Notes under the pieces: model-generated
The model's database searches: none
Told to the model about the DNA's origin: nothing
What the model saw: only the letters and a program-made list of their open reading frames with translations
NCBI GenBank assembly: GCA_029777945.1
Contig: JAKORG010000096.1
Span: 1-39,417, forward strand
Direction: 5' to 3'
From: Deltaproteobacteria bacterium
GTDB taxonomy: Bacteria; Desulfobacterota; Syntrophorhabdia; Syntrophorhabdales; Syntrophorhabdaceae
DNA: 39,417 nt
Translations under genes and position numbers: made by a program
Shown: positions 2,509-37,010 of the stretch, one piece after another
Numbering within the stretch: position 1 is the stretch's first letter
How the letters are laid out: each line of letters opens with the position of its first letter

Positions 2509-2524
2509 TGCAAATTGCATACCA
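2509..2524 (-). promoter_or_regulatory. Sigma-54 (-24/-12) promoter for flrBC
   Basis: On the minus strand the sequence is TGGTATGCAATTTGCA, with exactly ten bases between the invariant GG (2523-2522) and GC (2511-2510). This matches the RpoN consensus TGGCAC-N5-TTGCW. The predicted start of transcription is about 2498, one base before the flrB ATG. The three sigma-54 activators in this window and three further elements of the same form support the call. Confidence 0.72.
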
Positions 2525-2616: not shown

Positions 2617-4074
2617 CTATTCCATGCCTAATCTTTTCATCTTCTCTATCAGGGTTGTCCTATTCATGTTAAGAATGCTTGCTGCCTTACTTTTTATACC
2701 CTTTGTTTCCCTTAATGCCTTCATTATGATTGCCCTTTCGAATTCTGTCACAAGGGTATCATACCCTTTCTGTATGTCTATCTGCTCCTCTTTTTCCTTA
2801 GACACCCATAACTTTTCTGGTAGGTCCTTTATTGTAATCATTCCCCTTTTTTTCAAAACTACAACCCTCTCCACTATGTTGTTTAGTTCCCTTACATTTC
2901 CAGGATAATTGTAGGCCATCATTACCTCTAAGGCACCTTCATCAAACCCTTCAACATTTGCATCGTTTAGGCGATTTGCATGTTCGAGAAAATAGTTAAT
3001 AAGCAGTGGTATGTCCTGCTTTCTCTCCCTGAGAGGTGGGATATGGATAGGCACCACATTTAGTCTGTAAAAAAGGTCTTCCCTGAACTTACCCTCTTTA
3101 ACCATCTGCTCTAAATCTCTGTTGGTTGCTGCTATAAACCTCACATCTACCTTTATAGGTTTTGAGCCACCTATCCTTTCAAAGGTCTTTTCCTGAAGCA
3201 CCCTAAGCAACTTTACCTGAAGATTAAACGTCATATCGCCTATCTCATCGAGGAATATGGTCCCCTTATTTGCTATTTCAAACTTTCCATATTTTGTATT
3301 GTATGCACCGGTAAAGGCTCCTTTTTCATAACCGAAGAGTTCACTCTCTAAGAGGTTTTCAGGAATTGCCCCGCAGTTTACTACAACCATAGGGTTATCT
3401 CTTCTTAAAGAATTATAGTGTATGGCCTTTGCTACGAGCTCCTTACCTACGCCGCTTTCACCTGTTATAAGCACTGTGGCATTTGTCTCTGTAACCTTTT
3501 CTATAAGCTCAAACACCTTTTGCATCCCGAAACTTATACCTATTATATTATTGAACTTATACTTTTCTTTAAGCCTTTCTTTAAGCAAGGCATTTTCCAA
3601 AAGCAATCTGCTCTGGGAAAACCTCTTCATTAAATTTGCCTTTGATGAAAGCTTTTGATTGAGACCAACATTTGTCATTAGATTATAATAATATAGAGCA
3701 GATTCAACAACAGACAATATGTCTTCTAACTTGAATGGTTTTAATATGTAATCAAAGGCACCACATCTCATGGCGTTTATGGCATTTTCGAGGCTACCAT
3801 AGCCTGTTATTACTATGCCTAATGTATTTAGATATTCTTTTTGAATATAACTTATAAGCTGTAATCCATCGATTTTGGGCATGGCCATATCTGTTATAAG
3901 TATCTGGTATTTCCCTGTCTTTAGTGCTGAAAGGGCCTCAATACTGTCTCTAAAAGAATCTACCTCATAACCATTTTCCTGTAAAAATTCTGTAAGGAGC
4001 ATCAATATGCTCTCTTCGTCATCTACTATTATGATTTTACCCTTTGCCTTTTTTTCTTCCATAGATGAAGACAT
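2617..4074 (-). CDS. FleQ/FlrA-like sigma-54 activator with an intact receiver domain
   Basis: A 485-residue sigma-54 activator: receiver domain (about 12-130, putative phospho-acceptor D62), AAA+ domain with GESGVGKE at 205-212 and GAFTGA at 252-257, and a C-terminal helix-turn-helix ending [15 protein letters not shown]. That last segment closely resembles the DNA-binding end of FleQ/FlrA, the top-level flagellar activators. It lies upstream of flrBC with a 119-bp gap that holds a sigma-54 promoter, so it is the likely activator of flrBC. In classical FleQ/FlrA the N-terminal receiver-like domain is degenerate; here the phosphorylation pocket looks intact, so control by an unlinked kinase is possible. 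No clear ribosome site precedes either candidate ATG (residue 1 or 5). Confidence 0.82.
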
Positions 4075-5688: not shown

Positions 5689-5704
5689 TGGTATAAATTT
5701 TGCA
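5689..5704 (+). promoter_or_regulatory. Sigma-54 (-24/-12) promoter for the muramidase-motAB genes
   Basis: TGGTATAAATTTTGCA has exactly ten bases between GG (5690-5691) and GC (5702-5703). It is almost the same as the element driving the Hdr operon at 25409-25424 (TGGTATAAACATTGCA). The predicted transcription start is about 5715, two bases before the ATG at 5717, so the message would be nearly leaderless. Confidence 0.72.
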
Positions 5705-5716
5705 TAAAATTGCGTT

Positions 5717-6403
5717 ATGGGTTTGTATACTGAATTGCTTGATATAATTATTCTTTCCAAGATGGCTGAAAAAAGGAAAAATGACCTTTCAAGGCTATCT
5801 CAAACAAATGAAACAGATTTCCAAAATCTTTTAAAAGAAAATCTGACAAAAATAAATACACTCCCCCAGAATAACATCAAAAGAAATGTTTATAATCCAG
5901 TTGTTATTAATCAAATTTTTGAACTGAGTGGAGATAAGGACAAATGTTTTGAGGTGGCCTATGATTTTGTCTTAAAACAGGAAGGGGACAGGTTCGTTCA
6001 AAGGGATGGCATAAAAAACGAATCATCTAAATACGGGATTTTGCAATCCACTGCAAAGGAATTTGGATATAAAGGCGATATAAAACATATGACAAAAGAA
6101 CAGGCAAAGATCATCTATAAAAAAATATGGGATAAATCAGGGGCTGGTAATCTGTCTTATCCTTTAAGTATTGTATATTTCGATACATATGTGAATTCAC
6201 CGACCATGGCAAAAAAACTACTTGAAAAATCAGGAGGAGATATAGTTAAGTTTTTAGACATGAGGGAACAGAGGTATATAAGGCTTTCAAAAATAAGACC
6301 TGACATATTTGGCGTTTACTTAAAAGGGTGGATAAAAAGGGTGGATAATCTAAGGGCTATGATAATTGATTATGGCAAATCTCATGGAACGAAAAAGACA
6401 TAA
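5717..6403 (+). CDS. GH108-type peptidoglycan hydrolase (muramidase-like), probably flagellar
   Basis: A 228-residue protein. The first 75 residues have no clear domain. From about residue 80 it follows the glycoside hydrolase 108 / putative peptidoglycan-binding pattern: FVLKQEG with candidate catalytic E89, then RDGIKNESSKYGIL in place of the usual DxGGxTxxGIT, and a C-terminal half with YFDTYVNSP and LKGWIKRVDNL. Proteins of this family cut the glycan strand of peptidoglycan. No signal peptide is visible. In a flagellar setting it could open the cell wall for the rod, the job FlgJ does elsewhere; no FlgJ is seen here, but the flgB neighbourhood is cut off. The ATG lacks a Shine-Dalgarno sequence and lies two bases after the predicted sigma-54 transcript start. 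Confidence 0.72.
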   Translation: MGLYTELLDIIILSKMAEKRKNDLSRLSQTNETDFQNLLKENLTKINTLPQNNIKRNVYNPVVINQIFELSGDKDKCFEVAYDFVLKQEGDRFVQRDGIKNESSKYGILQSTAKEFGYKGDIKHMTKEQAKIIYKKIWDKSGAGNLSYPLSIVYFDTYVNSPTMAKKLLEKSGGDIVKFLDMREQRYIRLSKIRPDIFGVYLKGWIKRVDNLRAMIIDYGKSHGTKKT

Positions 6404-23749: not shown

Positions 23750-25117
23750 TCACGTTTTATTATATTCTTTTTCTATCTGTTCAAGTCTGCTGTATAGTTT
23801 TTTTCTGCTGATACCTAATATTCGGGCAGCCTTGCTTTTATTCCCTCCTACAGAATCTAATACACTTCTAATATGTTCAGTCTCTAATCTTGCAAGGGTA
23901 GAATCCATTTTTTTATTTGTTATATCCATTACTACTGTCTGACCATAATTTGAATAAAAGATCGCATCAGGAAGATCCTCCGGTAATATCTCCATCCTGT
24001 CAGTACTTATAAGACATGCCCTTTCTATCACATTTGCAAGCTCCCTTACATTTCCAGGCCAGTGGTACGCCTTTAATAATTCCATTACCCTTTCGGAAAG
24101 AATTTTCTTTTTGCCTGGCCTTGCGAACTTTGCAAGAAAATATTCTGCCAAAGGAGGTATGTCCTCTTTTTTTTCCCTAAGAGGTGGAAGATGTATAACA
24201 AAAGCATTCATTCTAAAAAAAAGGTCTTTTCTGAATTTCCCCTCTTTTATCTCATAAGTCAGGTCTTTATTCGTAGCAAATATAAATCGAATATTTACCT
24301 TTGTCTCTTTTGTGTCACCTAATTTTAAAAAGGTTCCGTTTTCAAGCACCCTTAAAAGTTTTGCCTGGATGGCAGGGCTCATATCCCCAATTTCATCCAC
24401 AAAAAATGTGCCTTCATTGGCTATCTCAAGAAGGCCAGGCTTATTCGTATGAGCACCTGTGAAGGCACCCTTTTTATATCCAAAAAGCTCACTTTCGAGC
24501 ATGGATTCCTGAAGGGCGCTGGAATTTATGGCAACAAAAGGATTTGATGCCCTTGGGCTTAGGCTGTGGATTGCCCTTGCGGCAAGTTCTTTTCCTGTGC
24601 CTGTTTCACCCTGGATAAGCACAGGTGTATCAGACGGTGCAACAAGGGATATTAAATCCTTAACCCTTTGCATCTGTTTGCTGTTGCCCACGAATTGATC
24701 CTGGATGCTGAGCCTCTGGATATGTTCTTTGAGGAGTATATTTTTATCCTTCAAGGACTTCTTCTCATAAGCCTTTAATATTATGGTGGATAGCTCTGAA
24801 GTTTTGCACGGCTTTGTAAGGTAATCATAGGCCCCAAGTTTCATAGATTTTATTGCCGTATCCACAGAGGCATACCCTGTCAACATCACAATTTCAATTG
24901 TAGGCTCATACTGTTTTATCTTGGAGAACAATTCAATGCCATCAATATCCGGTAATTTTATGTCAAGGACTGCCACATCAAAATCATTTTCCTCCACCCT
25001 TTTTAAGGCCTCTTCTCCAGATGTGGCAATGGTTATGTCCATATTCTCTTTTGATAGTTGTTTTTTAAAGGCCTGGGCCAACTGTATTTCATCGTCTACA
25101 ATTAAGACCCTTATCAT
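23750..25117 (-). CDS. Sigma-54-dependent response regulator next to the Hdr/Etf operon
   Basis: A 455-residue NtrC/AtoC-type activator. The receiver domain has D9, phospho-acceptor D52 and K99. The AAA+ domain has GETGTGKE at 167-174 and the sigma-54 loop GAFTGA at 214-219. A Fis-type helix-turn-helix lies near 426-447 (NKSKAARILGISRKKLYSRL). No histidine kinase is adjacent. It is divergent from the Hdr/Etf operon, and both have good -24/-12 promoters with two shared 17-bp palindromes between them. It is therefore the natural candidate activator of the operon and of its own gene; that is inference from layout. The PAS hybrid kinase at 9327-11651 is too far away to be assigned as partner. Confidence 0.9.
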   Translation of the reverse strand: MIRVLIVDDEIQLAQAFKKQLSKENMDITIATSGEEALKRVEENDFDVAVLDIKLPDIDGIELFSKIKQYEPTIEIVMLTGYASVDTAIKSMKLGAYDYLTKPCKTSELSTIILKAYEKKSLKDKNILLKEHIQRLSIQDQFVGNSKQMQRVKDLISLVAPSDTPVLIQGETGTGKELAARAIHSLSPRASNPFVAINSSALQESMLESELFGYKKGAFTGAHTNKPGLLEIANEGTFFVDEIGDMSPAIQAKLLRVLENGTFLKLGDTKETKVNIRFIFATNKDLTYEIKEGKFRKDLFFRMNAFVIHLPPLREKKEDIPPLAEYFLAKFARPGKKKILSERVMELLKAYHWPGNVRELANVIERACLISTDRMEILPEDLPDAIFYSNYGQTVVMDITNKKMDSTLARLETEHIRSVLDSVGGNKSKAARILGISRKKLYSRLEQIEKEYNKT

Positions 25118-25209
25118 TATATACCCCTTTTATTTTTACCATCGAAAATGTCTAAAAATTTAAATCGCCCCCTTACCGCCAAAATAAAGATTCTCATGAA
25201 TAATCTATC

Positions 25210-25225
25210 AGCAATTTAAATGCCA
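25210..25225 (-). promoter_or_regulatory. Sigma-54 (-24/-12) promoter for the response-regulator gene
   Basis: On the minus strand TGGCATTTAAATTGCT, with ten bases between GG (25224-25223) and GC (25212-25211), is the closest match to the RpoN consensus in the window. The predicted transcript start is about 25199, giving an 82-base leader. The two palindromes at 25281-25336 would lie about 90 and 129 bp upstream. Confidence 0.8.
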
Positions 25226-25280
25226 TAAACTTTTCTCCATGAACATTTACACAATATTATATCTAACGGGTTTATCAAAT

Positions 25281-25297
25281 TGTTTATAATGTAAACA
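25281..25297. promoter_or_regulatory. Enhancer-like palindrome, copy 1
   Basis: TGTTTATAATGTAAACA is a 17-bp inverted repeat with 6-bp arms. Its outer half-site TGTTT-N7-AAACA is shared with the copy at 25320-25336. Its centre is about 146 bp upstream of the predicted Hdr-operon start and 90 bp upstream of the regulator-gene start, the usual distance for binding sites of sigma-54 activators. Confidence 0.65.
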
Positions 25298-25319
25298 CAT
25301 TGTATCATATAGTGATATG

Positions 25320-25336
25320 TGTTTCCATAGGAAACA
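25320..25336. promoter_or_regulatory. Enhancer-like palindrome, copy 2
   Basis: TGTTTCCATAGGAAACA is a perfect 17-bp inverted repeat with 7-bp arms and the same length and outer half-site as copy 1; the centres are 39 bp apart. It is about 107 bp upstream of the operon's predicted start. A longer dyad (AAACACAT at 25293-25300 with ATGTGTTT at 25317-25324) links the inner halves of the two copies. Confidence 0.65.
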
Positions 25337-25408
25337 ATTTATGGGTGAAAAAAAACAAAAAAATATAAATATTTCTTATTAGTTGTAGAAGTAGAACAGT
25401 GTTGTTTG

Positions 25409-25424
25409 TGGTATAAACATTGCA
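25409..25424 (+). promoter_or_regulatory. Sigma-54 (-24/-12) promoter for the Hdr/Etf operon
   Basis: TGGTATAAACATTGCA has ten bases between GG (25410-25411) and GC (25422-25423). It differs by only two bases from the element before the muramidase-motAB genes. The predicted start is about 25435, leaving a 50-base leader before the first ATG (25485). Confidence 0.8.
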
Positions 25425-25433
25425 TATAGAAAT

Positions 25434-25455
25434 TAGACCGTTTTTAAAAGGTCTA
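25434..25455 (+). other. 5' leader stem-loop of the Hdr/Etf transcript
   Basis: TAGACC (25434-25439) pairs with GGTCTA (25450-25455), and the TTTT/AAAA between them extends the stem with one bulged G. It begins at the predicted sigma-54 transcript start, so the mRNA would start in a hairpin, an arrangement that can protect 5' ends. The ribosome site (AAGGGG) lies downstream and is not sequestered. Confidence 0.4.
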
Positions 25456-25484
25456 AAAAGAAAAAACTCATTAAGGGGTTATGT

Positions 25485-26579
25485 ATGCAAGATGAGGCAG
25501 CAAGTCGTGTGCTGGTTTGTATCCAGTGTGGAAAATGCACAGGCGGTTGTCCTGAATCCGGAAGGACACCTTTTAATATAAGAATGCTCGTTAGAAAAAG
25601 ATAATTTAATTATGCCATAGATGAATCCATGCCATGGTATTGCACTGCCTGTAATGCCTGCACGATTCGCTGCCCCAGGGATGTAAAACCATCAGAGATG
25701 ATTATAGAAATTAGGTCTTCATTGGTTGAAAACGGGGATATCCCTTTGGCAATTCAAAAGGCCCTTGAAAATACCTTTGTCCAGAAAAATCCATGGGGTA
25801 AGCCGAGGTCTAAAAGGGGTGAATGGGTGGAAAAATTAGATTTTAAGGTCCCCCACATATCAGAAACCAAGCACAAAAGACTCTTGTTTTTGTGTTGTGT
25901 CCACGCCTATGATCCCAGGTGTATGATAATACCTGTAAATGTGGCCCAACTATTGAATAAAGCAGGTTATGAATTCGGTATTCTTGGTGAAGAGGAGTGC
26001 TGCTGCGGTAACGAGATAAGAAGAATAGGCGAACTCGGATTGTTCGAAGAATTGATGGAAGAGAATAAGGCAAATTTTAAAGAATACGGTGTAGAAGAGA
26101 TAATAGCCCTTTCACCACACTGCATGAATACCTTAAAAAATGAATACGGAGATATGGGTATAAAGGTTATGCATTACACAGAGGTTTTGTCAAACCTCAT
26201 TAAAGAAGGTCTATTAAAGCCTGAAAAAACCTTTGAAAAGGAGTTAATCTATCACGACCCGTGTTTTTTAGGAAAGCAAAATAAAATCTTTGAACAACCA
26301 AGAGAGATTTTAAACAACATAAACAATGTAAAACTCAAAGAATTTTCCAGGTCAAGGGAGATATCCCTTTGTTGTGAAGGTGGTGGTGGAAGGATGTTTT
26401 TTGAGGTAGAGGCCCAATACAAAAGAAACAGTGAAACCAGGGTGGAAGAGGCGCAGGAAAAAGGCGCAGAGGTTATAACCACTGCCTGTCCTTTTTGTGT
26501 AATGACCCTTGAAGAAAAGGCAGTTGAAAAAGGGCTTGCAGTAAAAGAATTATCCGAGATATTGATGGAGGTGATATAA
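25485..26579 (+). pseudogene. HdrC-HdrB (HdrD-like) iron-sulfur oxidoreductase, interrupted by an in-frame TAA
   Basis: The intact form would be a 364-residue soluble fusion of HdrC and HdrB, which passes electrons from Etf or HdrA to a disulfide or other acceptor. Codons 1-39 (ATG at 25485 after AAGGGG) carry the first [4Fe-4S] motif CIQCGKCTGGCP. Codon 40 is TAA (25602-25604). The same frame then continues with FNYAIDESMPWYCTACNACTIRCP, the second [4Fe-4S] motif, and two CCG domains: CC...C, ECCCGNE, SPHCMNTL and DPCFLG, SLCCEGGGG, CPFCVMTL. A restart at ATG 25629 would give a 316-residue protein lacking one cluster, with only a weak ribosome site. A point mutation, a sequence error or a genuinely split gene are all possible. 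It is coupled to etfB one base downstream. Confidence 0.75.
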
Positions 26580-26580
26580 T

Positions 26581-27357
26581 ATGGATATTCTCGTATTTGT
26601 AAAAAGGGTTGCAGCAACCCAGGAAGAAGAATTAAGGATTATAGATGATGGTAAAAATATTGACCTTTCCAAGATCCCTTTCAAGATGAACGACTGGGAC
26701 AACTATGCTGTGGAAGAGGCAGTAAAGATAGTGGAAGATAAGGGAGGTTCTGTTACTGCCATATCAATAGGAAGTGGAGAATCTGATGAGGTCTTAAGAA
26801 GGGCAATAGCAATGGGCTCAAAAGATGGTATTTTAATAGAGTCAAATGAGACGATTCACGACCCGGCGCTTAGGGCACTGGCAATATATAATTTCATTAA
26901 AAAAGAGAATATGCAATTTGATGCAATTTTTACAGGTGTTCAATCAGAAGATGACCAATTTGCCGCAACAGGTGGATTTTTGGCAGGTAAAATGGGCCTT
27001 TCTTATGCATCTATGGTAATAGGCATAGATGCCATTGAAAATGGATATTTTGTTTTAAGAAGGGAACTCGAAGGCGGGCTTCAAGAAAGAATAAAGATAA
27101 AGACACCCTGTGTCTTGTCAATTCAGAGCGGCATAAACGAGCCGAGATATGTATCCATTATGGGCATAAGAAAGGCATCCAAGGTAGAAAGAAAGATAAT
27201 GAAATTCAATGATTATGCAGGAAGTGGAGATGCTGTTATAGATTTAATCAGGTGGTCTTATCCTGAGAAAAAGGGAGGGGCAACAATGCTGACCGGAGAA
27301 GTGGATGCTCAATGTAAAGAACTTTTGGAAATCCTTAAAAATAAGGGGGTGTACTGA
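26581..27357 (+). CDS. etfB: Electron transfer flavoprotein beta subunit
   Basis: A 258-residue EtfB/FixA-type subunit: N-terminal MDILVFVKRV, MNDWDNYAVEEA (36-47) in the nucleotide/flavin region, TGVQSEDDQFAATGGFLAGKMG, and a C-terminal arm. It dimerises with EtfA and, in the bifurcating members of the family, its flavin splits electron pairs between high- and low-potential acceptors. Whether this one bifurcates cannot be decided from the motifs I can read. It starts one base after the HdrCB gene and its last base is the first base of etfA, so translation is coupled. An Hdr-like iron-sulfur protein directly before etfBA is a known arrangement in syntrophs. Confidence 0.94.
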   Translation: MDILVFVKRVAATQEEELRIIDDGKNIDLSKIPFKMNDWDNYAVEEAVKIVEDKGGSVTAISIGSGESDEVLRRAIAMGSKDGILIESNETIHDPALRALAIYNFIKKENMQFDAIFTGVQSEDDQFAATGGFLAGKMGLSYASMVIGIDAIENGYFVLRRELEGGLQERIKIKTPCVLSIQSGINEPRYVSIMGIRKASKVERKIMKFNDYAGSGDAVIDLIRWSYPEKKGGATMLTGEVDAQCKELLEILKNKGVY

Positions 27358-28298
27358 TGGGTTACGCACTAATTATCTCTGAAGTAAGGCGCGGTGTTTT
27401 CGAGGAAAGAAACCTCGATGCCATAGGAATTGCAAACCTTGCAGGAAAAGATGCATATCTTCTTATCCCAGAAGGCAACTATAATATAAACGGCAATATG
27501 GTGGATAAAATAATAAAGGTAAAAACAGAAGAATCTATGTTTTTAAATCCTTTGATAATAACCGGGTTAATCACAAAAATTATGGATTCTTCAGCCTCAC
27601 CTGAAATGGTGATCTTTACCCATTCTTCATCAGGTATAGAGATGGCAAGTTATCTGGCAGGCAAGATGGGTCTCCCAATCATAACAGATATAAGCGGTTA
27701 TGAAAAAAACGGGGACATTTTCTTTAAAAGCTACTATTCGGATAAGGTCTTTGGTCAGTTCAAAAAAACAAAAGAAAGCCCTTTAATTCTAACAGTTAGA
27801 AGCGGTAGCTTTAAAGATTTTGCAACAGATAAGGGGAAACAGGCAGAAGAAACAACAGTAGAAGGTCTTTCGGGCATCGAGGAAAGAAGCTTTATAGAGT
27901 ATGTTGAGGAAGAAAAGACAGGGGTTGATATCACAAAGGCAGAGTTTCTTCTCTCCCTCGGTAGAGGTGTCGGCAACAAAGACGAGATACCGAAATTTGA
28001 AGAGCTTGCCCAACTCTTGAAGGCAACCATATCCGGTTCAAGACCAGTAGTGGATAAGCAATGGTTGCCTAAAGAAAGACAGGTTGGAACATCGGGGAAG
28101 ACTGTAAAACCAAAGGTTTATCTTGCCATGGGAATTTCAGGGGCATTCCAGCATATTGCAGGTATGAAAGACTCGGAATGCATCATAGCAGTCAATAAAG
28201 ACCCTGAAGCACCTATCTTTCAATATGCCCACTACGGGATTGTAGGAGACGCAAATAAGATAAGGGATAAATTAAAAGACATAATCCAAGGTGGATAA
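27357..28298 (+). CDS. etfA: Electron transfer flavoprotein alpha subunit
   Basis: A 313-residue EtfA/FixB-type subunit carrying FAD. The C-terminal FAD-binding signature is clear: [19 protein letters not shown] (226-244), [25 protein letters not shown] (246-270) and [19 protein letters not shown] (280-298). There is no N-terminal ferredoxin extension of the kind seen in some anaerobe EtfA proteins. It overlaps etfB by one base and is followed after 14 bp by the HdrA-GltD fusion, so Etf probably docks on the Hdr module encoded in the same operon. Confidence 0.95.
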
Positions 28299-28312: not shown

Positions 28313-31030
28313 ATGCAAGGGGAGCAGAGAGAAATAGAAAAAAGGGTCCTTGTCGTGGGAGGTGGTATAGGAGGGATTACCGCTGCCCTTGAACTTGCAG
28401 GATGTGGTGTAAAGGTAACCATGCTGGAAGAGACATCTTCCATAGGCGGGAGGATGATACAACTCGATAAGACCTTTCCCACCCTTGATTGTTCCACATG
28501 CACCCTTTCTCCTAAGATGGTGGAGGTGGCCTTAAATAAAAATATAGAACTTATCTCTCTGGCAAAACCCATAGGTATAAAAAAGAACGGCAAGGGTTTT
28601 AAGGTTACCATATTTAAAAAGGCAAGGTTTGTGGATGTGAAAAAGTGCACTGCCTGTGGCACGTGTTTTGCTGGTTGCCCTGTTGTCATGAAAAGCGAAT
28701 TTAACATGGGTATAGGTGAAAGAAAGGCAATATATATCCCCTTCCCCCAGGCAATACCCAATAAGGCCACAATAGATAAAAGGGAAGAAAGACCCTGCCA
28801 CGCTGCCTGCATTGATGCATGCCCCATAAATACCAATGTAGCTGGTTATCTTAGACTTATAAGGGACGGCAGATTTAAGGATGCCTATCTACTCATAAGG
28901 TCCACAAACCCGTTACCCTCTGTATGTGGAAGGGTATGTTATGCACCTTGTGAAGGTGTATGTAACAGGGGACAACTCGATGCCCCTCTTGCCATAAGGG
29001 ACTTAAAAAGATTTGCCGTTGATTCCTTCAATATCGATGAACTACCCATCCCTCAGGTCCAGAAAACGGACAAAAAAGTAGCCATAATAGGCGCAGGCCC
29101 TTCAGGCCTTGCATGTGCCCATGACCTTGCACTGGAAGGTCATAGTGTCACCATCTTTGAGGCACAACCTGAACCAGGTGGGATGTTAAGATATGCCATA
29201 CCTGAATATAGGCTTCCCAAAGATGAACTCCGTAAAGAAATCGACTACATAAAAAGGCTCGGCGTTGAAATTAAATGCAATAAAGAGGTGGGAAGGGATA
29301 TCACCTTCCTTGACATAAAAAACTCATTTGATGCAGTCTTTATAGGGGTAGGTGCCAGAAAAGGGGTAAACCTAAATATTGATGGTGAAGACCTAAAAGG
29401 AGTAATAGACGGCATCAGATTTTTAAGAATGGTCAACATGGGAGAAAAGATAGAACTCGGCAATGTGGTTGCAGTTATAGGTGGTGGCAACACGGCCATT
29501 GACTGTGCAAGAACAGCCCTTAGATTAGGCTCAAAAGAAGTCAAGGTCATATACAGAAGAACACAGGCAGAAATGCCTGCAGCCCATGAGGAAGTGGAGG
29601 CATTGATTAAAGAGGGGATTGTCATAGAGTTTCTCACAACACCAAAAAGGTTTATTTCAGAAAATGGCGCATTAAAAAAGATGGAATGTATAAGGATGGA
29701 ACTCGGTGAACCAGACTCATCTGGAAGGAGGAGGCCCGTAGAGATACCTGGTTCTGAATTTACCATTGATGTAGATACAGTAATCACGGCCCTTGGACAG
29801 AGACCGGAGACAGACTTTCTAAAAGACAGCATTAATCTCGGAAAAGACAGCACTATTAAGATAGATACAAAGACAGGGATGACGTCATTAGAAGGTGTCT
29901 TTGCCGGAGGCGATGCAGTCACAGGACCGGCATATGTAATAGATGCCATTGCTGCAGGAAAAAAGGCTGCCATTAACATTTCGAGGTATCTTAAGGGAGA
30001 GCCGCCTTATGAATTCGAAACATGTAAGGCCCCAAAATCCCTTACGGAAAAAGAGGTATCTCAATTAAAAGAAAAATACGGCACTGCCTCCCGTATTTAT
30101 GTAAAAGAAAAAGATGTGTCTCAGAGGATTAAAGATTTTAGCGAAGTTGTTATAGGTTATGACAGAGATAATGCCATATTAGAGGCATCAAGATGCCTTG
30201 CCAGTATGATCGAAGGTTGTATTGAATGCGGTGAATGCAAGAGGAGATGTGAAGCAGGTGCAGTAGACTATCAGATGAAAGATGAAGTGGTGGAGATGGA
30301 TTTTGACGGAATAGTAATAGCGCCTGGTTTTGATCTTTACGACCCAACAGAAAAGAAAGAATTGGGATACAAAAGATTAAAAGGTGTGATGACAGGCATT
30401 GAATTCGAACGTTTAAGCTCTGTTACAGGGCCCACCGGTGGAGAAATACTCTTTAACGGCAAAGTGCCTAAAAGATTTTATTTTATCCAGTGTGTTGGCT
30501 CACGGGATAGACAGACCGGTGCAAGATATTGTTCAAGGGTCTGCTGTATGTATACGGCCAAACATGCAAGTATAGTAAAGGACAGGATTAAGGATGCCAC
30601 AGTCTATATCTCATATATAGACGTAAGGGCCTATGGTAAAGGTTATGAAGAATTCTATAAAAGCACCCAAGAGGCAGGCGTCAAATACATTAGAGGCATT
30701 CCTGGTGAGATAGTAGAAGGTAAAAACGGTCTTATTGTAAGGGTGGAGGATATGTTAAGCGGCGAATTAAACGAGGTGGAGGTAGATCTTGTTATTCTTG
30801 CCACAGGGGTGAGACCAAAGGCACATATAAAAGAACTGGCAGAAATCATGTCATTGGCACTGGATGAATACGGTTTTGTAAAGGTCGACCCTGTTAATCC
30901 TTCTAAAACAAGCACCGATGGTATATTCGTATGTGGCATGGGCTCAGGCCCAAAAGACATACCCGATACAGTGGCATCAGCAGGTGAGGCTGCCTCTGCC
31001 TGTATGGAATATATAAAGGCGGATTTATGA
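28313..31030 (+). CDS. HdrA with an inserted GltD-type NAD(P)H oxidoreductase domain
   Basis: A 905-residue flavin/iron-sulfur protein of unusual design. Residues 10-125 are the first part of HdrA: VVGGGIGGITAALELAG, DCSTCTLSPKMVEV and the cluster motif CTACGTCFAGCP at 112-122. Residues 158-565 are a complete GltD-like domain: PCHAACIDACP, CGRVCYAPCEGVC, VAIIGAGPSGLACAHDLA, AVIGGGNTAIDCARTA (387-402), YRRTQAEMPA (414-423) and FAGGDAVTGPAYVIDAI. Residues 625-650 hold another cluster motif (CIECGECKRRC), and the rest is the second half of HdrA with CVGSRDRQTGARYCSRVCCMYTA. GltD uses NADPH to feed electrons through FAD and Fe-S clusters, so this subunit probably supplies NAD(P)H electrons to, or takes them from, the Hdr complex. 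It overlaps the next hdrA by four bases. Confidence 0.88.
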   Translation: MQGEQREIEKRVLVVGGGIGGITAALELAGCGVKVTMLEETSSIGGRMIQLDKTFPTLDCSTCTLSPKMVEVALNKNIELISLAKPIGIKKNGKGFKVTIFKKARFVDVKKCTACGTCFAGCPVVMKSEFNMGIGERKAIYIPFPQAIPNKATIDKREERPCHAACIDACPINTNVAGYLRLIRDGRFKDAYLLIRSTNPLPSVCGRVCYAPCEGVCNRGQLDAPLAIRDLKRFAVDSFNIDELPIPQVQKTDKKVAIIGAGPSGLACAHDLALEGHSVTIFEAQPEPGGMLRYAIPEYRLPKDELRKEIDYIKRLGVEIKCNKEVGRDITFLDIKNSFDAVFIGVGARKGVNLNIDGEDLKGVIDGIRFLRMVNMGEKIELGNVVAVIGGGNTAIDCARTALRLGSKEVKVIYRRTQAEMPAAHEEVEALIKEGIVIEFLTTPKRFISENGALKKMECIRMELGEPDSSGRRRPVEIPGSEFTIDVDTVITALGQRPETDFLKDSINLGKDSTIKIDTKTGMTSLEGVFAGGDAVTGPAYVIDAIAAGKKAAINISRYLKGEPPYEFETCKAPKSLTEKEVSQLKEKYGTASRIYVKEKDVSQRIKDFSEVVIGYDRDNAILEASRCLASMIEGCIECGECKRRCEAGAVDYQMKDEVVEMDFDGIVIAPGFDLYDPTEKKELGYKRLKGVMTGIEFERLSSVTGPTGGEILFNGKVPKRFYFIQCVGSRDRQTGARYCSRVCCMYTAKHASIVKDRIKDATVYISYIDVRAYGKGYEEFYKSTQEAGVKYIRGIPGEIVEGKNGLIVRVEDMLSGELNEVEVDLVILATGVRPKAHIKELAEIMSLALDEYGFVKVDPVNPSKTSTDGIFVCGMGSGPKDIPDTVASAGEAASACMEYIKADL

Positions 31031-32700
31031 AAGCGGGTATATTTATCTGTCACTGCGGACATAACATAAAACATACAGTGGATGTAAGGCGTTTGAGCGA
31101 ATATTTTAAAAAGATACCAGGAGTGGAGGTTGCCATTGACTACGCCTTTGTCTGTTCAGAACCAGGGCAGGATATTATAAAAGAGAGTATTGAAAATAAA
31201 CATCTGGACAGGGTTGTAATAGCCTCATGCACCCCATCTCTGCATGGGGATCTCTTCAAGGACCTCCTTAAAAAATCAGGGATAAACCCGTTCTATTTAA
31301 GACGTGTAAGCATAAGGGAGCACTGTTCATGGGTCGGCGATGACATTGAAGCAAATACAGAGAAGGCAAAAAGACTCATACTTTCAGGGCTCTATTCTGC
31401 AAGTCACTATATTCCCCTTGAAGAAAAAATGGTTGAAGTGAATAAATCTGCCCTTGTAATAGGTGGCGGTGTCTCTGGATTGAATGCTGCACTGTTTCTG
31501 GCTAAGATGGGAATAAAGGTATATCTCGTGGAGAGAGAAGAAGAATTAGGTGGTCATGTAAGACTTTTAAACAGTGTATGGCCGTCTAAAAGAAGTGGCA
31601 GAGAAATAGTAGCAGAGATGGTAGACGAATTAAATAGGCTTGCCAATGTAGACATATATACGAATACAACTATTACGAATTTTGAAGGTTTCTTCGGCAA
31701 TTATCAGGTAACATTAAAAAAGGGCGAAGATGAAAAGAAAATCATTGTTGGCGGAGTAGTTGTGGCAACAGGCTTTGTTCCCTTTGACCCTTCTATAAAG
31801 CCTGAATTGCATTACAATAAAGACAAAAGGATAGTCACTACCCTTGACCTTGAAAAAGGTTTAGAAACCCTTGAAATCTCTAAAAAACCTCGGGTAGCAA
31901 TACTCCATTGTATTGGCTCCAGAGATGAAACAATAGGGAAGTCCTATTGTTCGAGGATCTGTTGTATAAATGCCATAAAAACAGCAGAGGCATTAAAAGA
32001 AAAATATCCCGAATCCTATATAGAATCATTCTATATGGATGTAAGGGCCCATCCTAAAGGAGGGGAAGAATATTTTGAATCTGTCCAGGAAAAGGGTGTG
32101 CTCTTTACAAGGGGGAATGTGGCAGAGATAATACCCACTGATAAGAGTATAATAATCAGAGGAGAGGATACGCTTTTAGGAGAAGTTTACGAGAAGGAGT
32201 TCGACCTTGTCGTTTTATCAATAGGCATGTCATCCCCGGTGGAAAATAAAGCATTGGGCCAATTATTAAAGATATCCCTTGACAAGGATGGTTTTTTTCT
32301 CGAGGCACACATAAAGCTAAGACCGTTTGATACTGCGGTAAAGGGGATATTTATAGCAGGTTCATGCTCTGGACCCAAAGATGCCGAAGAATCCATTAAT
32401 CACGGAAAGGCTTCTGCCCTGAAACTTTTTGGTATGTTAAACCTCGGTTATACATTTGTTGATCCCTTTATATCCTATGTAGACCCCAAAAGGTGCAGTG
32501 GTTGCCGACAGTGTGAAGAGGCATGCATAGCCAAGGCTATAAAATTCGATGAAAAATTGAGGATTGTAAAGGTGGAAGAGGCTGCCTGTATGGGATGTGG
32601 TCTATGTAATGCCACATGTCCATCATCGGCCATATCATTGAAAGGATATTTCGACAGTTATATATCCGACGAGATAAGTGGACTTCTTGAGATAGCATAA
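31027..32700 (+). CDS. hdrA: HdrA-like flavoprotein, second copy, with two C-terminal ferredoxin motifs
   Basis: A 557-residue HdrA. The N-terminal domain (1-135) has GIFICHCGHNI and VIASCTPSLHG. The FAD domain starts at LVIGGGVSGLNAALFLA (about 142-158), and the flavin-proximal cysteines are in CIGSRDETIGKSYCSRICC. The C-terminal pair of [4Fe-4S] motifs is CSGCRQCEEAC and CMGCGLCNATCP. HdrA carries the FAD that bifurcates electrons between ferredoxin and the HdrBC disulfide site. It lacks the inserted ferredoxin of methanogen HdrA and complements the upstream HdrA-GltD, which has no N-terminal domain or C-terminal ferredoxin. The two may pair as an HdrA heterodimer. It is followed 22 bp later by mvhD. 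Confidence 0.92.
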   Translation: MKAGIFICHCGHNIKHTVDVRRLSEYFKKIPGVEVAIDYAFVCSEPGQDIIKESIENKHLDRVVIASCTPSLHGDLFKDLLKKSGINPFYLRRVSIREHCSWVGDDIEANTEKAKRLILSGLYSASHYIPLEEKMVEVNKSALVIGGGVSGLNAALFLAKMGIKVYLVEREEELGGHVRLLNSVWPSKRSGREIVAEMVDELNRLANVDIYTNTTITNFEGFFGNYQVTLKKGEDEKKIIVGGVVVATGFVPFDPSIKPELHYNKDKRIVTTLDLEKGLETLEISKKPRVAILHCIGSRDETIGKSYCSRICCINAIKTAEALKEKYPESYIESFYMDVRAHPKGGEEYFESVQEKGVLFTRGNVAEIIPTDKSIIIRGEDTLLGEVYEKEFDLVVLSIGMSSPVENKALGQLLKISLDKDGFFLEAHIKLRPFDTAVKGIFIAGSCSGPKDAEESINHGKASALKLFGMLNLGYTFVDPFISYVDPKRCSGCRQCEEACIAKAIKFDEKLRIVKVEEAACMGCGLCNATCPSSAISLKGYFDSYISDEISGLLEIA

Positions 32701-32722
32701 AAGCTATAGGAGGAATAGATAT

Positions 32723-33139
32723 ATGTCTGATAAAACAGAAAGAGAACCTGAAATAGTTGGCTTTGCCTGTTCTTATTGCACATTTAAGGCATCGGAAATG
32801 GCAGGCAGTCTCAGAATGAAATATCCGGAAAAGGTAAGGGTAATACAGGTGCCCTGTTCCAGTAGGGTTGATCCTGCCTTTGTAATAAAGGCTATTTTTG
32901 AAGGTGCAGATGGGGTGTTTGTCTCGGGCTGCCATCCAGGCGATTGTCACTTCATCAAAGGAAATTACTATACCAGGAGAAAGATGGCTGCATTGAAAGA
33001 GATGTTTAAGGCATTCTCCATGGACGGAAAGGTAAAACTCTTCTGGATTAGCGCAGCAGAGGCAAGGAGATTTATAGAAAAGATAACGAATATGTATAAC
33101 GAATTAAGGGAAGAGAAAAATGCAGGGAAAAAAAATTGA
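32723..33139 (+). CDS. mvhD: MvhD-like [2Fe-2S] electron-transfer subunit
   Basis: A 138-residue MvhD-type protein (methyl-viologen-reducing hydrogenase delta subunit family), which hands electrons to the HdrA flavin. The family cysteines are present: C16 and C19 in FACSYCTF, C45 in VPCSSRVD, and C70 and C75 in SGCHPGDCHF. It has an AGGAGG ribosome site. No MvhA or MvhG hydrogenase subunits are nearby, so the electrons must come from another partner, presumably the FrhB-like subunit encoded next, whose gene overlaps this one by 20 bases. Confidence 0.93.
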   Translation: MSDKTEREPEIVGFACSYCTFKASEMAGSLRMKYPEKVRVIQVPCSSRVDPAFVIKAIFEGADGVFVSGCHPGDCHFIKGNYYTRRKMAALKEMFKAFSMDGKVKLFWISAAEARRFIEKITNMYNELREEKNAGKKN

Positions 33140-34133
33140 TAAGGAAAAGCTAAGGGTTGCATTAAACAGGTTTGTGGAAAAACAAAACCAGATTGTATAC
33201 GGTTACGGAAAAAACGGCATTTTCATTACACACAAAATATATACAGATCATGTGGAAGACCTTTCCCTTTTCAATCCTTATTTTGGTATAAACGGTGCGA
33301 CCTTTTTTTACAGGGTCTTCAGCAAGGATATAAAGGTGGTGATGCTACTTAGGCCTTGTGAGATCAGGGCAATGATTGAACTTGTAAAATTAAACCAGAT
33401 AGAACCTGAAACAATAACCATGATATCTACAGACTGTCCAGGCACTGTCTCCCTAAAAAAGGCCAAAGCAGACCTGCCCGATGATTTTTTAGAGATACAA
33501 AAGGCAGCTGAGAAAGATGATGGCGGATTGAGATGGGCATGTAAATTCTGCAGGGAAAAAAGAGGCGTTTTTGGAGATGCAGGTATAAGGGTCCAAGAAG
33601 ACGGTGGCATGTGGATATTCCCATATACAGATAAAGGTAGCGATTTTTTAAACTTAATAGACGAAGAATTAGTTGAATATACAGGTAAATTCGTTATTTT
33701 AGAAAGCATGAAGACAGAACCTTTTGTTACTGATATGGATACATTCCATAAAGATTTTTCAAAATGTATCCTCTGTAAGAACTGTAGAGATATGTGCCCT
33801 GTATGCTACTGTGTGGATTGCCTGTTCAATGGAGACGAATATCTGCCAAAGGGTGACGCATTTATAAATAAGATGTTAAGAACAGGCACAGAAAACCTTC
33901 CATACGGAAAAGAAATCTTCCACATGATAAGGATGTATCATGTTTCTCAGACATGTGTAGGTTGTGGGGCGTGCGAAGAAGCATGTCCCCAGGATATCCC
34001 CATTACCAAATATTTTAAAGGTATATCTGAGAGACTGCAGAATCTCTTCTCCTATATGTCAGGAAGAGATGTAAAGGAAACGATACCATATCTAACATTT
34101 AAAGAGGATGAGCTAAAAGATACAGAAGATTGA
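33120..34133 (+). CDS. FrhB/FdhB-like iron-sulfur flavoprotein subunit
   Basis: A 337-residue protein related to the beta subunits of coenzyme F420 hydrogenase and of formate dehydrogenase. Residues 60-150 contain VVMLLRPCEIRAMI (C80), STDCPG (C106) and CKFC (C141, C144). Residues 216-234 carry a cysteine-rich cluster motif (CILCKNCRDMCPVCYCVDC), and CVGCGACEEACP at 279-290 binds a second [4Fe-4S] cluster. Relatives hold FAD and connect a nicotinamide or F420 site to Fe-S carriers. It starts inside mvhD (20-base overlap, ribosome site AGGGAAGAG), which argues for a tight MvhD-FrhB-like contact. No formate dehydrogenase or hydrogenase catalytic subunit accompanies it, so its electron donor is unknown. 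Confidence 0.85.
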   Translation: MQGKKIDKEKLRVALNRFVEKQNQIVYGYGKNGIFITHKIYTDHVEDLSLFNPYFGINGATFFYRVFSKDIKVVMLLRPCEIRAMIELVKLNQIEPETITMISTDCPGTVSLKKAKADLPDDFLEIQKAAEKDDGGLRWACKFCREKRGVFGDAGIRVQEDGGMWIFPYTDKGSDFLNLIDEELVEYTGKFVILESMKTEPFVTDMDTFHKDFSKCILCKNCRDMCPVCYCVDCLFNGDEYLPKGDAFINKMLRTGTENLPYGKEIFHMIRMYHVSQTCVGCGACEEACPQDIPITKYFKGISERLQNLFSYMSGRDVKETIPYLTFKEDELKDTED

Positions 34134-34134
34134 T

Positions 34135-34584
34135 ATGGAAAAGATAATAGCATATACTGGTTACAAGAAAAAAGATTTTTCCGCATGTTTGGGCTGTAAG
34201 ATATGTGCCTCTGTCTGCACATTAAACGATTTCTCCATGCATGCAAACCCACAAGGTCTTCTTCTGAAAATACTTTTAGGTGATAACACAATTACCGATG
34301 ATCCCCTTATAAAAAATTGTGTAAGCTGCTACAGGTGCACTGATGCATGCCCCTGGCAGATAAGGGTGCCTGAAGTGGTAAGGGCAATAAGAGAGACTTT
34401 GGAACTGTCCTCTCCCTTTGAAAAGGCCTTTAAAGGTTCCATTTCTATCTGGGGAAGGGTTTATGAACCATATATATTTATGAATGCCATAGGCTTTCTT
34501 ATAAAAAACGGATACTTAAAACATCTTATGAAATGGACAGAGTATATAAGCTTTCATTTACCACATAAAATAAAAAGGATTTGA
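34135..34584 (+). CDS. hdrC: HdrC-like iron-sulfur subunit
   Basis: A 149-residue HdrC with the two expected [4Fe-4S] motifs, CLGCKICASVC (about 19-29) and CVSCYRCTDACP (about 62-73), followed by a helical tail with a hydrophobic, aromatic stretch (YEPYIFMNAIGFLI). HdrC wires the HdrA flavin to the catalytic HdrB. It starts one base after the FrhB-like gene and stops three bases before hdrB. It is the second HdrC in the operon, the first being the broken N-terminal part of HdrCB. Confidence 0.92.
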   Translation: MEKIIAYTGYKKKDFSACLGCKICASVCTLNDFSMHANPQGLLLKILLGDNTITDDPLIKNCVSCYRCTDACPWQIRVPEVVRAIRETLELSSPFEKAFKGSISIWGRVYEPYIFMNAIGFLIKNGYLKHLMKWTEYISFHLPHKIKRI

Positions 34585-34587
34585 GAT

Positions 34588-35265
34588 ATGGAATACAGTT
34601 ATTACCCGGGTTGTTCTCTAACTGGTTCTGCAAAAAGGCTTGATATGGCTACAAGAAAAATACTTTTAACCCTTGGCTACACGATAAAGGAAATACCTGA
34701 ATGGAACTGTTGCGGTGCCGTAGAATACGGTAACAAAGAAGAGCTTATAAGGCTATCCCGAGAAAATCTCAAAAAGGCAGAGGCAGTATCTAAAACCATT
34801 ATAGCCCCCTGTCCTGCCTGTTATAGAAATCTGAAAGAATCTAATAGAGATGGCGATTTTAATATCTATAATCCCCTTGATATGTTCAATGTAGCAGACA
34901 TTAACAAACTGGAGATAAAAAAAGATCTAAAAAAAATGGTCTTTACGCCTTATTATGGTTGTGTGCTTCTAAGACCAAAGGAAACGGCCATTAAAAACAG
35001 AAATATAATTGAAGAGATAATAACAAATTTCGGTGGAGAAATAGACGGTGAAAAAATAAGAGACAGATGCTGCGGAGGGAATCTCTTCTTTTCCAATAAA
35101 GAGATGACAGAAAAATGTGTAAATCTCATTGCATCGAGGTCAAAGGGTATATTTGTAGTTTATTGTCCCCTATGCCATATGGCACTGAACACCTTTTCTA
35201 ACAGAAAGGTCGTATATATTACAAACATAATACTATATATGCTGGGAGAAAGAAAAAATATATGA
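34588..35265 (+). CDS. hdrB: HdrB-like subunit with two CCG domains (short form)
   Basis: A 225-residue HdrB, shorter than typical HdrB proteins of about 290 residues. Both CCG cluster-binding domains are still complete: YYPGC, WNCCGAVEYG and APCPACYRNL in the first, then YYGC, DRCCGGNLFF and YCPLCHMAL in the second. In methanogen Hdr these bind two non-cubane [4Fe-4S] clusters that cleave the heterodisulfide; in bacteria the true substrate is mostly unknown. The shortening lies in the linker between domains and in the loops. Its stop overlaps the start of the third hdrA by four bases. Confidence 0.92.
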   Translation: MEYSYYPGCSLTGSAKRLDMATRKILLTLGYTIKEIPEWNCCGAVEYGNKEELIRLSRENLKKAEAVSKTIIAPCPACYRNLKESNRDGDFNIYNPLDMFNVADINKLEIKKDLKKMVFTPYYGCVLLRPKETAIKNRNIIEEIITNFGGEIDGEKIRDRCCGGNLFFSNKEMTEKCVNLIASRSKGIFVVYCPLCHMALNTFSNRKVVYITNIILYMLGERKNI

Positions 35266-37010
35266 ATGTACTTATAATCGGTGGTGGAATTAGTGGTATC
35301 TCTGCGGCAAAGGTCCTTCTCAAAGAAGGCCACAGGGTTACAATAGTAGAATCTACAGAAGATTTGGGCGGCCTTATGGCAAAAATAGCCAATTGCCGTG
35401 TAGGTTTTAAAACCTTTTTTGATGAAATCCATGATAGAAGAAACCTCACCATCATAAAAGGAAAAAATATAGAACACGTAGAAAAAAATAATGATGGGAT
35501 TTATAAGGTAAGGATAGAAAAAGAAGGGGAAATAGAGGCAGAAAAGGTAATCATAGCAACAGGGCTTATGCCCTATGACCCTGTTGAAATAAAAGGAAAA
35601 AGGATCTTAACGAGCCTTGAATACGATTCTATAATCGACCAGAAAAAGGAGAAAATGCCTGAAGATTTTAATAAAATCGCCTTTATCCTCTGTGTGGGAT
35701 CAAGGTCGAAAGAATATCCCCTCTGTTCATCAGTGTGTTGCTCTTATACAATAAGGGAAATAAAATGGACCCTTATGAGGTCAAACCCTGAGATAACGGT
35801 CTTTTATAATGATTTAAGATTATTCGGACAGGAGTTCTTTCTCGAAAGAATGTTCAGGGAAAGGGGGGTTCGCTTTATCAGAACAAATACGAGATATTTT
35901 GAGGAAGACGAAAATGGTGTAACAATAAGATTTTACATAGACGGTGAAATCAAAGAAGAAAGGTTTAATTATGCTGTACTCGCTATAGGGTTGAGGCCAA
36001 ATCAAAGCCTCATCAACTTGTCACGACTATTCGGTTTTTCCCTTAATAACCATGGATTTGTATATGAAACAGCACCCCTTACCGCAGTAGATGGAAAAAT
36101 CTACATATGCGGAGGGGCAATAGAACCCATGAACATAAAGGACTCAATCCTTACCGGTTTTGGTGCAGGACTACTCGCTTCCATGGGAAAAGATAAGATT
36201 AACGATTTCTTAAAACACCATGAAAGATATCTTTACAAAGAAAGGGAGCCAGAATTCATTATAGACAAAGATGCCAGTTCATACCTTTTCTACATAGGAG
36301 CAGATGATACCTTTTCTTCCATGTTCTATGAATATGCCTCCAGCAGATTTGTGAAAATTGCAAAAGAACTCATAGGTTTAGGCAAAAAGGTTTATGTAAT
36401 AACAAAAAACCTTGTAGTACCATCGTATGGTGAAATAGAATACGAGCTCATAAAAGAAGAAGGAGTTATTTTTATTAACCTTGAGGAAGGGGAATACCTG
36501 GAAACAAAAGATGGCAAGGTAGTTATTACAGGGGGGAAAAGAGAACTATCCTTTAATGTGGATAGGATGGTCTTCATGGAGGATCTCATATCAGGGCATA
36601 AAACAAAAGAGTTTCTTTCCTTTTACAGGTCAGAACCACAACTGAGGTGGTCACCTACAAAATGGAACAGAGAAAGGTTCCATATTGGATTCATAAGACA
36701 TCCAAGGGCAGAAAGATGGGAAGGAAGAGAAATCATAGGTGCACTGGCAGAAATTTTACTCGATAAAGAAGAAGAAAGGGTAATCCCTGAGGTGAACGAA
36801 GAAAGGTGCAGCGGCTGTGGTTCATGCAAAAATGCCTGTCCCCATAATGCCATTGAGATTACTCAAGTCCCAAAAGATGTGGCCATCTTCGGCCTTTTAA
36901 GTAATACTTTAAATCCTGTGGCAAAGATAAACTCAGACCTGTGCATGGGCTGTGGTCTATGTGCCTCCACATGCCCATCTGATGTAATAAATTTACCCAC
37001 TGCCCAGTAA
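35262..37010 (+). CDS. HdrA-like flavoprotein, third copy, with extra domain
   Basis: A 582-residue HdrA relative. It opens directly with the FAD motif (MNVLIIGGGISGISAAKVLL), so it lacks the N-terminal HdrA domain. It keeps the flavin-proximal cysteines (CVGSRSKEYPLCSSVCC) and ends with two ferredoxin motifs, CSGCGSCKNACP and CMGCGLCASTCP. Between the flavin domain and the ferredoxins (about 325-500) lies an extra region (YLFYIGADDTFSSMFYEYASSRFVKIAKE...) that I do not recognise. QmoA-like or HdrA-like naming would both be defensible. It is the last gene of the operon; its final codons and stop lie within a 42-bp tandem duplication. Confidence 0.85.
   Translation: MNVLIIGGGISGISAAKVLLKEGHRVTIVESTEDLGGLMAKIANCRVGFKTFFDEIHDRRNLTIIKGKNIEHVEKNNDGIYKVRIEKEGEIEAEKVIIATGLMPYDPVEIKGKRILTSLEYDSIIDQKKEKMPEDFNKIAFILCVGSRSKEYPLCSSVCCSYTIREIKWTLMRSNPEITVFYNDLRLFGQEFFLERMFRERGVRFIRTNTRYFEEDENGVTIRFYIDGEIKEERFNYAVLAIGLRPNQSLINLSRLFGFSLNNHGFVYETAPLTAVDGKIYICGGAIEPMNIKDSILTGFGAGLLASMGKDKINDFLKHHERYLYKEREPEFIIDKDASSYLFYIGADDTFSSMFYEYASSRFVKIAKELIGLGKKVYVITKNLVVPSYGEIEYELIKEEGVIFINLEEGEYLETKDGKVVITGGKRELSFNVDRMVFMEDLISGHKTKEFLSFYRSEPQLRWSPTKWNRERFHIGFIRHPRAERWEGREIIGALAEILLDKEEERVIPEVNEERCSGCGSCKNACPHNAIEITQVPKDVAIFGLLSNTLNPVAKINSDLCMGCGLCASTCPSDVINLPTAQ

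What the first reader, a model, noticed from the sequence alone, without database searches (positions are those of the whole stretch)
25199..25435. Sigma-54 divergon: two outward RpoN promoters sharing two 17-bp palindromes control an Hdr/Etf operon and its presumed activator
Seen: TGGCATTTAAATTGCT facing the response regulator and TGGTATAAACATTGCA facing the Hdr/Etf operon, each with the exact GG-N10-GC spacing. Between them lie two 17-bp inverted repeats with the same half-site (TGTTT-N7-AAACA), centred -107/-146 from one predicted start and -90/-129 from the other. Known: NtrC-family activators bind paired palindromes of about 17 bp some 100-150 bp upstream of -24/-12 promoters. Inferred: the regulator at 23750-25117 binds both sites and drives both directions, making this Hdr/Etf machinery a signal-induced system and not a housekeeping one.
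Basis: partly seen in the sequence, partly recalled or inferred. Interest (0 to 1): 0.85.

Follow-up and report, generated by a model that had tools for sequence, protein, structure and literature searches.

The report
Sigma-54 switch for Etf/Hdr operon
A stretch of control DNA between two back-to-back genes of an uncultured syntrophic bacterium carries a conserved on-switch (two sigma-54 promoters and a cluster of activator-binding palindromes), so its electron-transfer machinery is very probably turned on by a signal rather than always on.

Summary
Both -24/-12 boxes and both palindromes are present. They are conserved in the one other genome of the genus, and both boxes plus the operator block carry over to the next genus. 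The Hdr/Etf box and an operator about 80-140 bp upstream of its start recur across Syntrophorhabdales: 26 of 29 boxed promoters, against 0.05 expected by chance. The half-site needs correcting: the family-wide operator is TGTWTC-N5-GAWACA, not TGTTT-N7-AAACA. It occurs exactly once in the 2.4-Mb genome, at 25320-25336. The regulator is an intact NtrC-type response regulator, and its orthologues lie beside this operon, usually with a PAS histidine kinase. In this genus that kinase is gone and the regulator is an orphan. A second target was found: a TRAP-transporter gene beside an acyl-CoA dehydrogenase and an orphan kinase of the sister clade. Best reading: a phosphorylation-controlled sigma-54 module that switches on substrate uptake, acyl-CoA oxidation and its Etf/Hdr electron outlet, with self-activation. 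Binding, start sites and the kinase partner are untested. It is a well-supported new member of a known kind.

The parts
23750..25117 (-). NtrC-family response regulator (receiver, AAA+ with GAFTGA, Fis-type HTH), clade RR-A; presumed activator of both promoters
   Evidence: Pfam Response_reg, Sigma54_activat, HTH_8; orthologues linked to the same operon; tree
25211..25225 (-). -24/-12 box TGGCATTTAAATTGC facing the regulator; predicted +1 near 25200
   Evidence: identical in the sister genome, TGGCACTTAAATTGC facing the kinase gene in the next genus
25281..25297 (.). operator site 1 TGTTTATAATGTAAACA (genus-level; 10 of 12 to the family consensus)
   Evidence: TGTTTAAAAAGTAAACA in the sister genome
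25301..25317 (.). degenerate middle operator TGTATCATATAGTGATA, aligned with the main site TGTATCATTTTGATACA of the neighbouring genus
25320..25336 (.). operator site 2 TGTTTCCATAGGAAACA, 12 of 12 to TGTWTC-N5-GAWACA; the only exact match in the genome
25403..25419 (.). third TGTTT-N7-AAACA copy overlapping the plus -24 box; probably incidental
   Evidence: left half not conserved
25409..25423 (+). -24/-12 box TGGTATAAACATTGC facing the Hdr/Etf operon; predicted +1 near 25434
   Evidence: an exact box lies within 130 nt of the start in 25 of 36 genomes, 0.02 expected
25485..26579 (+). first operon gene (P1): HdrC/HdrB-like iron-sulfur protein with CCG domain; in-frame TAA at 25602-25604
26581..28298 (+). 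EtfB and EtfA
28313..37010 (+). HdrA-like flavoproteins (28313-31030, 31027-32700, 35262-37010), MvhD/FlpD (32723-33139), iron-sulfur protein (33120-34133), HdrC-like (34135-34584), HdrB-like (34588-35265)
   Evidence: order conserved in relatives

Best explanation
The 367-bp intergenic region is a sigma-54 divergon. The response regulator, once phosphorylated, binds a cluster of in-phase operators (25281-25336; family consensus TGTWTC-N5-GAWACA, about 19-20 bp apart) and, as an enhancer-binding AAA+ ATPase, opens sigma-54 polymerase at both -24/-12 boxes. This turns on the EtfBA/Hdr operon and its own gene (positive feedback). The same regulator activates a second locus on another contig, a TRAP solute-binding protein gene next to an acyl-CoA dehydrogenase. 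The module therefore co-induces substrate uptake, acyl-CoA oxidation and the Etf/Hdr electron outlet. Shown by sequence: sites, conservation, linkage, uniqueness of the operator, an intact regulator, rpoN present. Inferred: binding, activation, autoregulation, the physiological role. The kinase is unknown; the ancestral partner is lost, and an orphan sister-clade kinase next to the second target is the best candidate in this genome.
For: Boxes and palindromes are real and non-random. Both are footprinted across two genera. Operator of at least 11/12 at -140..-80 in 26 of 29 boxed relatives, 0.05 expected; exact boxes in 25 of 36 genomes, 0.02 expected. Exact operator occurs once in 2.4 Mb. The regulator has all domains and stays linked to the operon, with a kinase in sister genera and kinase-regulator-operon in line in family f3. 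Regulator and kinase trees show two parallel clades. The second target has box and operator at -129, with the same layout in f3 (-136) and G006 (-108). 57 exact boxes in the genome against 8 for the reversed control; rpoN present.
Against: No binding, transcript or mutant data. Only two genomes of the genus are held. The kinase that should feed the regulator is missing from the locus in both. At one mismatch the operator is no commoner than its control (34 against 32), so the second target rests on position and conservation, not on the motif alone. About a fifth of relatives (7 of 36) lack a recognisable box before the operon. The TAA in the first gene, if real, would damage the operon in this strain.
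Confidence: 0.85

Rival explanations
1. The operon promoter is sigma-54 dependent and the operators are real, but the regulator does not activate its own gene: the box facing it is a relic of the kinase-regulator operon, and the regulator is transcribed constitutively from a sigma-70 promoter.
For: In the neighbouring genus the homologous box faces the kinase, not the regulator. Weak sigma-70-like matches exist on the minus strand, at chance level. Many enhancer-binding proteins are not autoregulated (general knowledge).
Against: The box is letter-identical in both genomes of the genus, with +1 and operator spacing inside the normal range (-89/-128), although the surrounding DNA has diverged.
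Confidence: 0.12
2. The palindromes bind a different protein, such as a repressor or global regulator with a TGTTT/AAACA-like site, and not the adjacent response regulator.
For: Site 1 departs from the family consensus; no footprint exists; a third copy overlaps the promoter itself as a repressor site would.
Against: The exact operator is unique in the genome, excluding a global regulator; it sits at enhancer distance from a sigma-54 box in relatives and tracks the genes linked to this regulator family.
Confidence: 0.06
3. Chance: AT-rich intergenic DNA produced boxes and palindromes that do nothing.
For: The intergenic region is 27% G+C.
Against: Shuffles, family-wide conservation and footprinting exclude it.
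Confidence: 0.01

Closest known systems
NtrC-family two-component enhancer-binding proteins at sigma-54 promoters (AtoC, ZraR, NtrC as best NCBIfam models)
   Same: Receiver, AAA+ with GAFTGA, Fis HTH; inverted-repeat operators about 80-145 bp upstream of -24/-12 boxes; divergent, self-activating layout.
   Different: Scores fall far below every named equivalog cut-off, so it is not AtoC, ZraR or NtrC itself; operator TGTWTC-N5-GAWACA and target operon differ; the kinase is missing from the locus.
Sigma-54 regulons reconstructed in Desulfovibrio (PMC4641369)
   Same: Same class of evidence: conserved sigma-54 promoter plus palindromic operator next to an enhancer-binding-protein gene, controlling metabolic operons.
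   Different: No mention of heterodisulfide reductase in that paper's text; different order of bacteria.
Flox-Hdr and Fix/Etf electron-transfer systems of syntrophs (PMC5017805, citing the Syntrophorhabdus aromaticivorans genome paper)
   Same: Etf and Hdr modules for electrons from acyl-CoA oxidation in syntrophic bacteria, including Syntrophorhabdus.
   Different: Here EtfBA and several HdrA-like proteins are combined in one operon with an HdrCB-like first gene; no regulation was described there in the passages read.

Membership tests
Sigma-54 (-24/-12) promoter | TGGYAY-N5-TTGC with GG-N10-GC spacing | tested here: met
   Two exact matches, conserved
Sigma-54 (-24/-12) promoter | rpoN gene in the genome | tested here: met
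   PF04552 at C34:26694-27170, 208.9 bits
Sigma-54 (-24/-12) promoter | transcript start 12 nt after the -12 element, lost without rpoN | not testable with these tools
   needs RNA data
NtrC-family response regulator (enhancer-binding protein) | receiver domain, sigma-54 interaction AAA+ domain, Fis-type HTH | tested here: met
   Pfam, all over cut-off
NtrC-family response regulator (enhancer-binding protein) | GAFTGA loop, Walker A, phospho-acceptor aspartate | tested here: met
   GAFTGA, GETGTGKE and VLDIKLPD read directly in the translation
NtrC-family response regulator (enhancer-binding protein) | inverted-repeat operators about 80-150 bp upstream | tested here: met
NtrC-family response regulator (enhancer-binding protein) | cognate histidine kinase | tested here: inconclusive
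   absent from the locus in both genomes of the genus; an orphan clade-B kinase lies elsewhere in this genome
NtrC-family response regulator (enhancer-binding protein) | binds these operators | not testable with these tools
   needs footprinting or gel shift
AtoC / NtrC / ZraR equivalogs | score over the NCBIfam curated cut-off | tested here: not met
   AtoC 424 against 714 bits; NtrC 384 against 559; ZraR 368 against 760

The most novel reading that the evidence does not exclude
A rewired two-component system: this genome lost the kinase that belonged to the regulator (clade A) and keeps a kinase of the sister clade B, without that clade's regulator, on a second locus absent from the sister genome at that site. 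The clade-B kinase now drives the clade-A regulator, which works because the two clades share an operator. A catabolic island would thereby have been wired into the host's own Etf/Hdr switch.
Probability: 0.3. Interest if true: 0.62.

Novelty: new member of a known kind. Interest (0 to 1): 0.5.

Why it matters
How syntrophic bacteria decide when to build the costly Etf/Hdr machinery that disposes of electrons from acyl-CoA oxidation is largely unknown. This gives a concrete switch: a named regulator family, an operator motif unique in the genome, conserved promoters across Syntrophorhabdales, and co-regulated uptake and dehydrogenase genes that point to the inducing substrate. It also offers a natural case of a kinase and a regulator from sister two-component systems left to pair with each other.

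Tried and rejected
TGTTT-N7-AAACA as the regulator's genome-wide motif: 11 hits in the genome, but seven of the eight outside the divergon lie inside genes and none was seen to have a sigma-54 box in place. Third palindrome at 25403 as a functional repressor site: left half not conserved. Stop-codon reassignment to explain the TAA in the first gene: relatives read Gln there and have no stop. Contamination as the source of the C32 kinase contig: its neighbouring 884-aa gene is 90% identical to the sister genome. IHF consensus WATCAAN4TTR between operators and promoters: none found. Viral relatives of the first operon gene: none. Plasmid relatives of the regulator: none of 60% identity or more. 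Published description of sigma-54 control of Hdr/Etf in Syntrophorhabdus: none found in the open library, which lacks most subscription papers.

Full report
What was checked. The intergenic region 25118-25484 (367 bp, 27% G+C) separates a response-regulator gene on the minus strand (23750-25117) from an iron-sulfur/Etf/Hdr operon on the plus strand starting at ATG 25485. Both -24/-12 boxes are exact TGGYAYN5TTGC matches in the stated orientation. Shuffling the region almost never yields one box (3 of 2000) and never two palindromes. With +1 at 12 nt after the G of the -12 GC (25434 and 25200), the palindrome centres lie at -145/-106 and -89/-128.

Where it is. Related records place the organism in Syntrophorhabdaceae/Syntrophorhabdales; the sister genome (G001) corresponds to MAG SKW285, labelled Syntrophorhabdaceae. 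The window's own genome has 2.4 Mb in 102 contigs and encodes sigma-54. It holds 57 exact -24/-12 boxes against 8 for the reversed control pattern, so this box is very probably a working motif in this organism.

Conservation. Aligning the intergenic region of the two genomes of the genus with two of the neighbouring genus leaves three conserved blocks in otherwise diverged DNA: the minus-strand box, the operator block around 25280-25336, and the plus-strand box; the ribosome-binding site is conserved too. Beyond these genera, an exact box lies within 130 nt of the operon's first gene in 25 of 36 genomes (0.02 expected). Of 29 promoters with a box, 26 carry an operator matching at least 11 of 12 positions of TGTWTC-N5-GAWACA at -140 to -80 (0.05 expected), and 12 match all positions. 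The consensus was derived from these same sequences, so these counts measure recurrence more than they provide an independent test; the independent check is that the exact motif occurs once in the window's genome, at 25320-25336.

The operator. In the window's genus the block holds three elements at -145, -125 and -106, spaced 19-20 bp, about two helical turns. The middle one is degenerate here but is the best site in the neighbouring genus (TGTATCATTTTGATACA).

The regulator and its lost kinase. The regulator has receiver, AAA+ (GAFTGA, Walker motifs) and Fis-type HTH. In the neighbouring genus and in genus g4 a PAS histidine kinase gene lies between it and the operon, with the regulator directly downstream of the kinase. 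In family f3 kinase, regulator and operon run in line. Trees of 34 regulators and 33 kinases show two parallel clades, A and B. The window's regulator is clade A, sister to regulators that keep a clade-A kinase; in both genomes of the window's genus that kinase is gone from the locus. The closest related kinase left in this genome is clade B, at C32:33813-35366; no regulator other than the window's own scores at E 1e-150 in this genome. The neighbouring gene shows that C32 belongs to this genus. Contigs of the sister genome and of G020 carrying that neighbour do not show the kinase, dehydrogenase or TRAP genes beside it. The sister genome (about 90% complete) shows no such kinase at E 1e-90, so there the regulator's partner is unknown too.

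A second target. On C32 the TRAP solute-binding-protein gene has an exact -24/-12 box and, centred at -129, a one-mismatch operator TGTTACCTTTAGAAACA. Next to it lie an acyl-CoA dehydrogenase and the clade-B kinase. The same layout with a TRAP gene is seen in f3 (G042, -136) and G006 (-108), and acyl-CoA ligase/dehydrogenase operons in g4 genomes also carry operators and boxes. In G042 one stretch runs TRAP transporter, acyl-CoA ligase, acyl-CoA dehydrogenase, kinase, regulator, Etf/Hdr operon. Of 57 boxes and 34 one-mismatch operators in the window's genome, I found only the window divergon and this locus to combine both at the right spacing (comparison of the coordinate lists). One-mismatch operators as such are not enriched over control (34 against 32).

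How it most likely works. Inferred from the above and from established knowledge of enhancer-binding proteins: a signal linked to a TRAP-imported carboxylate or to its oxidation leads to phosphorylation of the regulator, which assembles on the operator block and remodels sigma-54 polymerase at both divergent promoters and at the TRAP promoter. Uptake, acyl-CoA oxidation and the Etf/Hdr outlet rise together and the regulator amplifies itself. That sigma-54 controls the operon is strongly indicated; that this regulator binds the operators is likely; which kinase feeds it is open.

What is known. Sigma-54 regulons of this design have been reconstructed in Desulfovibrio (PMC4641369), and Flox-Hdr and Fix systems are reported for aromatic-degrading syntrophs including Syntrophorhabdus (PMC5017805). 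I found no description of this operator or of sigma-54 control of an Etf/Hdr operon in the open library. I therefore file it as a new member of a known kind, with the possible kinase re-pairing as the most novel reading.

Noticed in passing
25602-25604: In-frame TAA at codon 40 of the operon's first gene, at an invariant Gln in all aligned relatives; no close relative has a stop there. Either a real nonsense mutation or an assembly error in this MAG.
   Followed up: partly
25434-25455: The predicted operon transcript begins with a hairpin (UAGACC...GGUCUA, z -2.8); the sister genome has a longer stem at the same place (AGACCC/GGGTCT), though not better than its shuffles.
   Followed up: partly
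2510-2524 (minus): Exact -24/-12 box 13 bp upstream of a histidine kinase gene (1403-2497) that lies beside a second NtrC-type response regulator (2617-4074).
   Followed up: no
5689-5703: Exact -24/-12 box so close to the start of a Glyco_hydro_108-like gene (5717-6403) that the transcript would be nearly leaderless, or the true start codon lies further on.
   Followed up: no
L135 5335-9367 (G000:C32): TRAP solute-binding protein, acyl-CoA dehydrogenase and orphan clade-B kinase, about 83-85% (first two) and 60% identical to a family-f3 cluster, absent beside the same neighbour gene in the sister genome: possible horizontal gain.
   Followed up: partly
G000:C40:7930-8532: A second, truncated copy of the TRAP solute-binding-protein gene, 87% identical to the C32 copy.
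   Followed up: no
L155: A MAG labelled Spirochaetes carries the operon's first gene at 69% identity: horizontal transfer or a binning/labelling error.
   Followed up: no
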